This document shows positions 9,557 through 11,226 of a DNA stretch of 64,000 nt, one piece after another. Numbering within the stretch: the stretch's first letter is position 1; every line of letters begins with the position of its first letter. The stretch lies in contig JADGAR010000001.1 in NCBI GenBank assembly GCA_015231915.1, positions 80,625 to 144,624 of the forward strand, read 5' to 3'. The notes below the pieces were generated by a model that worked only from the letters and a program-made list of their open reading frames with translations, was not told where the DNA came from and did not search any database. Source of the DNA: Magnetococcales bacterium. GTDB taxonomy: Bacteria > Pseudomonadota > Magnetococcia > Magnetococcales > Magnetaquicoccaceae. The position numbers and the translations under genes were made by a program.

Positions 9557-10667
9557 TCAGGCGGATCCCTCGCCGATCCGTTGCGACAGGGCCGCCTTGA
9601 TGAAATCGTCCAGGTCGCCATCCAGCACGGCATCGGCGGCGCCTTTCTCCACGCCGGTGCGCAGGTCCTTCACCATGCGGTAGGGGTGGAGGACATAGGA
9701 GCGGATCTGGCGCCCCCAGCCGATTTCGCTCTTGGCCTCGTTGACCGCCCTGACCTCCTCGGCGCGCTTGTCCAATTCGAGTTGATAGAGACGGGCCTTG
9801 AGCATGCCCATGGCATCGTCCTTGTTGCGGTGCTGGGAGCGCCCGTTCTGGCACTGCACGACGATGCCGGTGGGGAAATGGGTGATGCGCACGGCGGAGC
9901 TGGTTTTGTTGACGTGCTGTCCTCCTGCGCCGGAGGCGCGGTAGGTATCGATGCGCAGGTCCTTTTCGTCGATGGCCACCTGGATGCTTTCGTCCACTTC
10001 CGGATAGACGAAGACCGAAGAGAAGGAGGTGTGTCGCCGGGCCGAGGCGTCGAAGGGGCTGATGCGCACCAGGCGATGGACCCCGCTTTCGGTTTTCAGG
10101 CGACCGTAGGCGTAAGCCCCCTCCACCCGGACGGTGACCGATTTGCAACCGGCCTCGTCGCCGGGCTGGTAGTCGTTCATTTCGGCCTTGAGGCCGTGGG
10201 ATTCGCACCAGCGCAGGTACATGCGCAGCAGCATCTCGGCCCAGTCCTGGGATTCGGTGCCGCCGGCCCCGGGATGGATTTCCAGGAAGGCGTTGTTTAT
10301 GTCCGCCTCGCCGGAGAGCATGCGTTGCAGTTCCAGGGCATCGACGCGGGCCAGCATGGCGACGGCCTGACGGGCGGTTTCGTCCAGCATGGCCTGTTCC
10401 TGCTCGTCGCAGGCCATCTGGTGGAGTTCCCGCGCGTCCCGGAGTTCCTGGTCGAGGTGGTCCCATTCGCCGATGGTGTTTTCCAGGCTGCTTTTTTCCC
10501 GCATCACTGCCCTGGCGCGGTCGGGCTGGTTCCAGAGGGCCGGATCCTCGGAGAGGGCGGTAAGCTCTTCCAGCCGTTTTTTGCCGTGATCGTAGTTAAA
10601 GATGCCCCCTCAGGAGAACCAGCTTCTCCTGGATGGCGTCGAAATTTTTTTGAATGTTCTCATCCAT
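9557..10667 (-). CDS. prfB: Peptide chain release factor 2 (joined by programmed +1 frameshift at UAA)
   Basis: Terminates translation at UGA and UAA. Translation begins at the ATG at 10667 with MDENIQKNFDAIQEKL, reads 23 codons to CTG AGG GGG CAT CTT TAA (stop 10598-10596), and must slip +1 to continue as NYDHGKKRLEELTALSEDPALW. With the slip the protein has 369 aa; SPF is at 203-205 and the catalytic GGQ at 248-250 (E. coli 250-252). The internal SD-like AGGGGG and slippery CTT are as in E. coli, but the stop is TAA, not TGA, so D after the slip is replaced by N. Because RF1 also reads UAA, RF2 shortage alone should control frameshifting less tightly. A TATAAT promoter lies upstream. Confidence 0.95.
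10596..10610 (-). promoter_or_regulatory. RF2 +1 programmed frameshift site with UAA stop
   Basis: Reading the minus strand: AGG GGG CAT CTT TAA C. The AGGGGG acts as an internal Shine-Dalgarno sequence three nucleotides before the CTT slippery codon, the geometry of known RF2 sites. The zero-frame stop is TAA (forward tta at 10596-10598) where nearly all described sites carry TGA. Confidence 0.92.
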
Positions 10668-10736: not shown

Positions 10737-10773
10737 CGTTCGATGCAACCCTATTGCGCACAGGTTGAAAAGC

Positions 10774-11226
10774 ATGCCGCAAATTGACGAGCCATCCCGG
10801 GAAGAAATTTTGCAAAAAATTGACAACATGGAATTTTTCGCAAAATTTTCCCCCTACGAAAAAAAGCGGATCTGTGGTCATCACGCCTCGTTCGAGAGCT
10901 ATCCCCCCGGGGGACGGATCATTATCGCCGGAAGTCGGGACACTTCGTTTTTCATCATCATTTCCGGTTCGGTGAGCGTGGAGAAGCAGCGTGTAGGGAT
11001 CATCGTGCTGACCGCCGGGGAATTTTTCGGCGAGATGGCCTTTCTGACCAACACCCCGCGCACCACGGACGTGGTGGCGATGGAGAAGACGCTGTTGTTG
11101 AAAATCAGCCAGGAGTTGCTGGACAATCTGAGTTCCGAGATCCGGGAGAAGATCAAGGACCGCATCATCAAGGTGCTGGTGGAGCGGCTCAACAAGTCCA
11201 CGGAGCGGTTGCGGGTGCGGATGTGA
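10774..11226 (+). CDS. Cyclic-nucleotide-binding domain protein
   Basis: Single-domain protein of 150 aa (an ATG at 10765 would add three residues). It has the cNMP-binding beta-roll: PPGGRIIIAGSRDTSFFIIISGSVSV followed by the phosphate-binding-cassette-like GEFFGEMAFLTNTPRTTDVVA and a C-terminal helix. There is no DNA-binding helix-turn-helix, so it is not a CRP-like transcription factor by itself; it probably senses a nucleotide and signals to another protein. It is divergent from prfB and is followed after 52 nt by the AT-rich ATPase gene, with no evidence of functional linkage. Confidence 0.85.
   Translation: MPQIDEPSREEILQKIDNMEFFAKFSPYEKKRICGHHASFESYPPGGRIIIAGSRDTSFFIIISGSVSVEKQRVGIIVLTAGEFFGEMAFLTNTPRTTDVVAMEKTLLLKISQELLDNLSSEIREKIKDRIIKVLVERLNKSTERLRVRM

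What the first reader, a model, noticed from the sequence alone, without database searches (positions are those of the whole stretch)
10596..10610. prfB programmed frameshift uses UAA instead of UGA
Sequence: AGG GGG CAT CTT TAA C on the minus strand, with full RF2 homology on both sides only if a +1 shift occurs. Known RF2 sites use UGA, which RF2 alone reads, creating feedback. UAA is also read by RF1, so termination here should compete with frameshifting regardless of RF2 level. Either the control is RF1+RF2 based, UAA termination is weak in this context, or the base is a sequencing error. The following residue changes Asp to Asn accordingly.
Basis: partly seen in the sequence, partly recalled or inferred. 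Interest (0 to 1): 0.75.

Follow-up and report, generated by a model that had tools for sequence, protein, structure and literature searches.

The report
RF2 frameshift site with UAA stop
In one genus of Magnetococcales bacteria the gene for release factor 2 carries the stop codon UAA, instead of the usual UGA, at the site where ribosomes are predicted to jump one base; this rare stop is shared by all eight species that could be read, so the switch likely loosens the factor's control over its own making, and a predicted RNA hairpin that may help the jump lies just upstream.

Summary
Observation confirmed: minus strand 10610-10595 reads AGGGGG CAT CTT TAA C, and RF2 homology continues only in the +1 frame. 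It is not an error: 37 of 48 genomes of the order have the site; all 8 in the window's genus read TAA, the 29 others TGA; the 8 form one clade needing one change. Elsewhere TAA is sporadic. The kind is known: 1.4% of 8,164 sites in a 2025 survey, which judged TAA not broadly fixed in clades (PMC12421855); here it is genus-wide. RF1 is encoded, so both factors should read this stop; feedback through RF2 likely persists, diluted, with RF1 cross-control. New lead: a predicted stem abutting the internal Shine-Dalgarno, favoured by codon choice in the order (mean z -2.10 against -0.09; 21 of 37 at p<=0.05), absent in three genomes that lost the shift, weaker in other families, with thin covariation. 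Frameshifting, feedback and hairpin function are untested.

The parts
9557..10667 (-). prfB (RF2), whole gene needing one +1 shift; 369 residues when joined
   Evidence: TIGR00020 519.5 bits against cut-off 370; only one match over the RF2 cut-off in the genome
10596..10667 (-). ORF1: 23 codons and premature TAA
10611..10631 (-). predicted stem-loop CAGGAGAA-GCTGG-TTCTCCTG, 8 bp, abutting the internal Shine-Dalgarno
   Evidence: MFE -12.2 kcal/mol, lower than all 500 synonymous-codon versions in that run; coordinates
10605..10610 (-). internal Shine-Dalgarno-like AGGGGG
10602..10604 (-). spacer codon CAT
10598..10601 (-). slippery CTTT (CTT Leu codon plus the first base of the stop)
10596..10598 (-). 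premature stop TAA in place of TGA
10595..10595 (-). C directly after the stop (position +4), as in other RF2 sites
9557..10597 (-). ORF2 in the +1 frame, from AAC (Asn) to TGA at 9559-9557; 346 residues
10708..10736 (-). promoter-like site (GTGACG, 17 nt, TATAAT with TG before it) upstream of the ATG
   Evidence: consensus match only

Best explanation
This is a prfB frameshift site of the standard layout in which TGA was likely replaced once by TAA in the ancestor of one Magnetococcales genus, so ribosomes on it are predicted still to slip +1 from CUU to UUU, but would do so in a race against termination by both RF1 and RF2 rather than by RF2 alone. Shown: the sequence, the open +1 frame encoding RF2, the presence of prfA, TAA in 8 of 8 readable genus members and TGA in the 29 other order members with the site, and a tree on which the TAA rows are one clade needing one change. 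Inferred: the direction of the change, that frameshifting occurs, and that feedback stays negative through RF2, because this RF2 has the Ala246-type residue that goes with UAA reading and UGA is the commonest stop in the sampled genus DNA, while RF1 would now also repress RF2 synthesis. A predicted stem-loop directly 5' of the internal Shine-Dalgarno, which TGA relatives have too, likely adds to the shift and may have made the change tolerable; that last link is a guess.
For: Site and frames; RF2 identity; prfA at 504.4 bits against cut-off 423.25. 37 of 48 order genomes hold the pattern: 8 TAA, all in the genus; 29 TGA, none in it. Tree of 40 RF2 proteins: TAA rows one clade, support 100/99, one change (the Asn/Asp column itself was left in, 1 of 346). 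Pairwise fourfold differences in the genus are 0.08-0.52, so the species are truly diverged. RASGAGGQ (Ala at the 246 position, placed by motif) and SPF in 40 of 40 sequences; PMC5373646 (passages) says UAA is decoded by both RF1 and RF2 in strains whose RF2 has Ala246. Stop use in DNA samples of five genus genomes: UGA 142, UAA 45, UAG 26 of 213 long ORFs. PMC12421855 (passages) holds that TAA sites would still respond to RF2. Stem-loop; a designed hairpin upstream of CUUUGA gave about 60% of the SD effect in vitro (PMC6321510, passages).
Against: No reads, ribosome profiling or mass spectrometry were available; frameshifting is inferred from layout. The strength of UAA-C in this lineage is unknown, and two factors at the stop should lower RF2 output, an odd change in UGA-rich genomes. 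Constancy of the A is weak evidence for selection: 27 of 116 fourfold columns are also invariant across the eight. For the stem, 16 of 37 sites do not reach p<=0.05 singly, among them two of the eight TAA species (G006, G008) and seven of the eight f13 genomes; covariation is thin (one pair changed on both sides, 369 of 500 shuffles as high on that count; none). TGA relatives have the stem too, so it does not explain TAA.
Confidence: 0.75

Rival explanations
1. Sequencing or assembly error, or a lone broken gene.
For: The window's assembly is in 133 contigs.
Against: 8 of 8 readable genus members read TAA, six of them under different assembly names, with real synonymous divergence and an otherwise intact RF2.
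Confidence: 0.02
2. TAA is a nearly neutral substitute: RF2 does most UAA reading, so the loop works much as with UGA and the change has no regulatory meaning.
For: Ala246-type RF2 in 40 of 40, TGA species included; UAG only 26 of 213 stops, which hints at little RF1; PMC12421855 argues that TAA sites still respond to RF2; TAA arises sporadically elsewhere.
Against: TAA is rare over bacteria (1.4%) and was found in 0 of 94 matching genomes of the phylum outside the order, so it is likely selected against as a rule.
Confidence: 0.35
3. Release-factor feedback has been lost in this genus and the site is a fixed-rate throttle on the way to full loss, as in the in-frame family.
For: The order contains a clade of three genomes that lost the shift; high RF2-specific stop use goes with loss in PMC12421855 (abstract), and UGA is 142 of 213 here.
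Against: AGGGGG, spacing, CTTT and the +4 C are intact in all eight; decay would be expected if control were idle. PMC13245932 (passages) found the tie between UGA use and loss not significant once phylogeny is allowed for (P = 0.0576).
Confidence: 0.15
4. The upstream stem is not a shift stimulator but hides a decoy Shine-Dalgarno (AGGAG in its 5' arm) so that the rRNA tail stays free for AGGGGG.
For: GGAG faces CTCC or CTTC in 36 of 37 sites; the review PMC5009743 (passages) notes that competitor SD sequences are lacking just 5' of the site.
Against: In some other families the predicted stems have arms without that core, e.g. GAGCG with CGTTC, though the codon-controlled signal in that family is weak (f31, mean z -0.60).
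Confidence: 0.3

Closest known systems
Bacterial prfB +1 programmed frameshift (E. coli type, AGGGGG TAT CTT TGA C)
   Same: Short ORF1, internal SD, 3-nt spacer, CTTT, +4 C, RF2 in the +1 frame.
   Different: Stop is UAA, which RF1 should also read; the residue after the shift is Asn, not Asp.
TAA-type prfB sites of the 2025 survey (1.4% of 8,164; PMC12421855)
   Same: CTTTAA premature stop; the survey found such sites in multiple phyla and kept among strains of a species (passages).
   Different: The survey calls TAA not broadly fixed in clades; here it marks a whole sampled genus (8 of 8). Its supplement was not read, so overlap with its list is unknown.
Designed hairpin upstream of CUUUGA stimulating +1 shift in vitro (PMC6321510)
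   Same: Hairpin close 5' of the same slippery site (predicted here).
   Different: Natural, and next to an SD rather than in place of one; effect untested.

Membership tests
prfB programmed +1 frameshift | Short ORF1 ending in a premature stop, RF2 encoded only in the +1 frame | tested here: met
prfB programmed +1 frameshift | SD-like AGGGGG three nucleotides before CTTT | tested here: met
prfB programmed +1 frameshift | C directly after the stop | tested here: met
prfB programmed +1 frameshift | Premature stop readable by RF2 (TGA or TAA, as the 2025 survey counts it) | tested here: met
   TAA; survey passages
prfB programmed +1 frameshift, textbook form | Premature stop read by RF2 alone (UGA) | tested here: not met
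   TAA in 8 of 8 genus sites, and prfA is in the window's genome: hence a variant, not the textbook form
prfB programmed +1 frameshift | Ribosomes shift and RF2 level controls the rate | not testable with these tools
   needs a reporter, profiling or proteomics
Upstream +1-stimulating hairpin | Predicted hairpin close 5' of the slippery site, more stable than coding need explains | tested here: met
   37 sites, mean z -2.10 against 490 control windows at -0.09; 21 of 37 at p<=0.05, own site p = 0.000 of 500
Upstream +1-stimulating hairpin | Base pairing proved by compensatory changes | tested here: inconclusive
   one pair changed on both sides, a count that 369 of 500 shuffles reach; covariation score reached by 14 of 500; 88.3% of cells paired against 48-60% when slid; no two-sided change in the RNAalifold consensus
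Upstream +1-stimulating hairpin | Raises +1 frameshifting | not testable with these tools
   no assay here

The most novel reading that the evidence does not exclude
The RF2 frameshift cassette has a second, undescribed cis element: a stem-loop docked against the internal Shine-Dalgarno at the ribosome's mRNA exit, kept in Magnetococcales and in other families of the phylum and dropped with the shift; in one Magnetococcales genus it supports a cassette whose stop is UAA, turning RF2 autoregulation into a sensor of RF1 plus RF2 together.
Probability: 0.35. Interest if true: 0.65.

Novelty: new variant of a known kind. Interest (0 to 1): 0.45.

Why it matters
The prfB site is the textbook case of autoregulation by frameshifting, and its logic rests on a stop that only RF2 reads. 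A genus in which that logic is relaxed in every species sampled is a natural experiment on whether factor specificity matters, and it qualifies the published view that TAA is poorly tolerated and not fixed in clades. If the upstream stem-loop works, a much-studied cassette of 16 nucleotides is incomplete; one published in vivo assay used only 23 nucleotides of E. coli prfB around the site (PMC2680264, passages), too short to hold such a stem.

Tried and rejected
Loss of RF1, which would have made UAA an RF2-only stop, was checked and rejected for the window's genome. Sequencing error rejected. Bypass by an ordinary start upstream in the RF2 frame rejected: stop at 10612. The SPF and RASGAGGQ motifs do not differ between TAA and TGA species. 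Stop usage does not separate the genus cleanly from relatives: UGA 142 of 213 in the genus, 58 of 102 in the sister genus, 35 of 43 in G021 (crude ORF calling on 20-100 kb a genome). Rfam has nothing at the site; four hits with E<=1, all far below their gathering scores, lie upstream at 10795-10900. Fixed TAA clades elsewhere: none seen in two families; I could not centre a search on the genera of the single cases (searches failed). A link between TAA and a strong upstream stem in other taxa: of seven TAA loci, two of them identical over the stretch tested, two pass p<=0.05, so no claim. Dropped before counting: four of 15 genome-contig hits without an RF2 match; 44 of 94 non-order matches for want of fetched RF2 sequence.

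Full report
What is there. The minus strand holds a complete prfB with a premature stop: ATG at 10667, 22 further sense codons ending in AGG GGG CAT CTT, then TAA at 10598-10596 and C at 10595. In the +1 frame the sequence goes on with AAC TAC GAT to TGA at 9559-9557; the joined product matches the RF2 model at 519.5 bits with cut-off 370. The genome has one match over the RF2 cut-off and one over the RF1 cut-off, so UAA should have two readers.

It is real. In the order, 37 of 48 genomes match GGGGGNNNCTTTRACTAYGA: 8 read TAA and all are in the window's genus; 29 read TGA and none is. Eleven did not match: three genus members without a readable site (G004, G007, G009), three genomes of one family whose prfB is in frame (G027, G034, G038), and five others in which no prfB, or only a cut-off piece, was found (G015, G016, G026, G031, G043). 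On a tree of 40 RF2 proteins the TAA rows are one clade (100/99, one change; the Asn/Asp column was left in, 1 of 346; the root is not inferred). The eight differ by 0.08-0.52 at shared fourfold sites, but 27 of 116 fourfold columns are invariant too, so constancy of the A shows that it is inherited, not that it is selected.

How rare. A 2025 survey (PMC12421855; abstract, introduction and passages seen; supplement not read) found TGA in 98.6% and TAA in 1.4% of 8,164 sites, no TAG; it found TAA in several phyla and kept among strains of a species, and judged it poorly tolerated and not broadly fixed in clades. Here: 131 of 398 genomes drawn from the phylum match GGGGGNNNCTTTRACTWYGA; the 8 TAA are the genus and the other 123 are TGA, 94 of them outside the order. 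In two large families the TAA form occurs in 0 of 398 and 2 of 392 genomes, the two being of 1.4 and 1.8 Mb. A scan of genome contigs for AGGGGGNNNCTTTAACTAYGA gave 15 hits; 11 encode RF2: six of this genus and five single cases (a Sumerlaeia, a Sphingobacterium, a Comamonadaceae, Thiodictyon intracellulare, Serratia symbiotica). These patterns are strict, so other TAA sites may be missed. The kind is known; genus-wide fixation is what is added. A search for papers holding 'Magnetococc', 'release factor' and 'frameshift' gave none (open-access library only).

How it likely works. By the mechanism described for E. coli (PMC12421855, introduction), tRNA-Leu on CUU slips into the +1 frame while the stop waits in the A site, helped by the internal SD. 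With UAA the wait should be ended by RF1 or RF2. This RF2 has Ala at the position called 246 in E. coli (placed here by the motif RASGAGGQ, from recall) as do all 40 sequences compared; PMC5373646 (passages) reports UAA decoding by both factors in strains with that residue. In DNA samples of five genus genomes UGA ends 142, UAA 45 and UAG 26 of 213 ORFs of 150 codons or more. So RF2 is likely the larger share of UAA readers and feedback would stay negative, weaker per unit of RF2, with RF1 as a new repressor. None of this was measured.

The stem-loop. Directly 5' of AGGGGG lies CAGGAGAA-GCTGG-TTCTCCTG (10631-10611). Against synonymous versions of the same ten codons, the 37 sites of the order have mean z -2.10, 21 at p<=0.05 and 13 at p<=0.01; 490 control windows in the same genes have mean -0.09, sd 0.99, 5.7% at p<=0.05. 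Singly, 16 sites miss p<=0.05, among them G006 and G008 of the genus, seven of eight f13 genomes and three of four f5 genomes; G025 has no stem (p = 0.738). Codons in the stem are nearly frozen (GAG in 36 of 36 Glu; CTC 34 and CTT 3 of 37, against CTG as the usual Leu codon; T as third base in 33 of 37), those in the loop are not (AAG 21 and AAA 15; six Leu codons). In the three in-frame genomes the excess is gone (z 0.48, -0.30, -0.11), but that is one loss event. Compensatory change is thin: one pair changed on both sides, a count that 369 of 500 shuffles reach; the covariation score is reached by 14 of 500; 88.3% of cells are paired against 48-60% with partners slid; the RNAalifold consensus keeps five pairs of the stem with no two-sided change. 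Outside the order I tested 50 of 94 matching genomes (those with enough RF2 sequence fetched): mean z -1.22 against -0.13, 17 of 50 at p<=0.05. By group means the window ending at the SD is the lowest in both sets (-2.10 over 13 order groups, -1.22 over 20 other families), with t-tests against downstream windows at p = 0.00007 and 0.005; groups are not independent, and the first window after the stop is also low in the other families (-1.09), which weakens that part. Family f25 (eight loci) shows no stem of more than three pairs next to the SD, and f31, f23, f50 and f81 give little or none. By hand from the rounded rows, the TAA genus has mean z about -2.7 and the rest about -1.9; one clade, so no inference.

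Known or new. PMC6321510 (passages) shows that a designed hairpin upstream of CUUUGA stimulates +1 shifting in vitro, about 60% of the SD effect. My searches (listings) and term look-ups in PMC12421855 and PMC13245932 showed no report of a natural stem there; subscription papers are not covered.

Verdict. A real, inherited, rare variant of a textbook site; ordinary as a kind, unusual in being genus-wide, with an upstream stem-loop as the more novel lead.

Noticed in passing
window 10631-10611 (-), and the homologous stretch in 36 other Magnetococcales loci: Predicted stem-loop abutting the internal SD, favoured by codon choice and gone in the three genomes that lost the frameshift.
   Followed up: partly
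first 30 nt of ORF2 after the site in 20 other families of the phylum: A second dip in codon-controlled folding energy (family mean z -1.09), unexplained.
   Followed up: no
codon before AGG (window 10613-10611; 37 order sites): CTA, 21 of 1,144 Leu codons in ORF2, stands here in 19 of 37 genomes (the window itself has CTG); it would lengthen the SD to TAAGGGGG and puts a stop in the RF2 frame just upstream.
   Followed up: no
RF2 alignment columns 67, 296, 320: Three residues fixed in the eight TAA species differ from one residue shared by all 32 others (D to E, H to R, N to A).
   Followed up: no
window 10687-10668 (-): No evident Shine-Dalgarno in the 20 nt before the prfB ATG at 10667.
   Followed up: no
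loci L071, L073, L220, L221: Several isolated TAA cases are in small or symbiont-named genomes (Thiodictyon intracellulare, Serratia symbiotica, genomes of 1.4 and 1.8 Mb).
   Followed up: partly
window 10765-11226 (+): Divergent ORF of 153 aa that looks by eye like a cyclic-nucleotide-binding domain; not searched.
   Followed up: no
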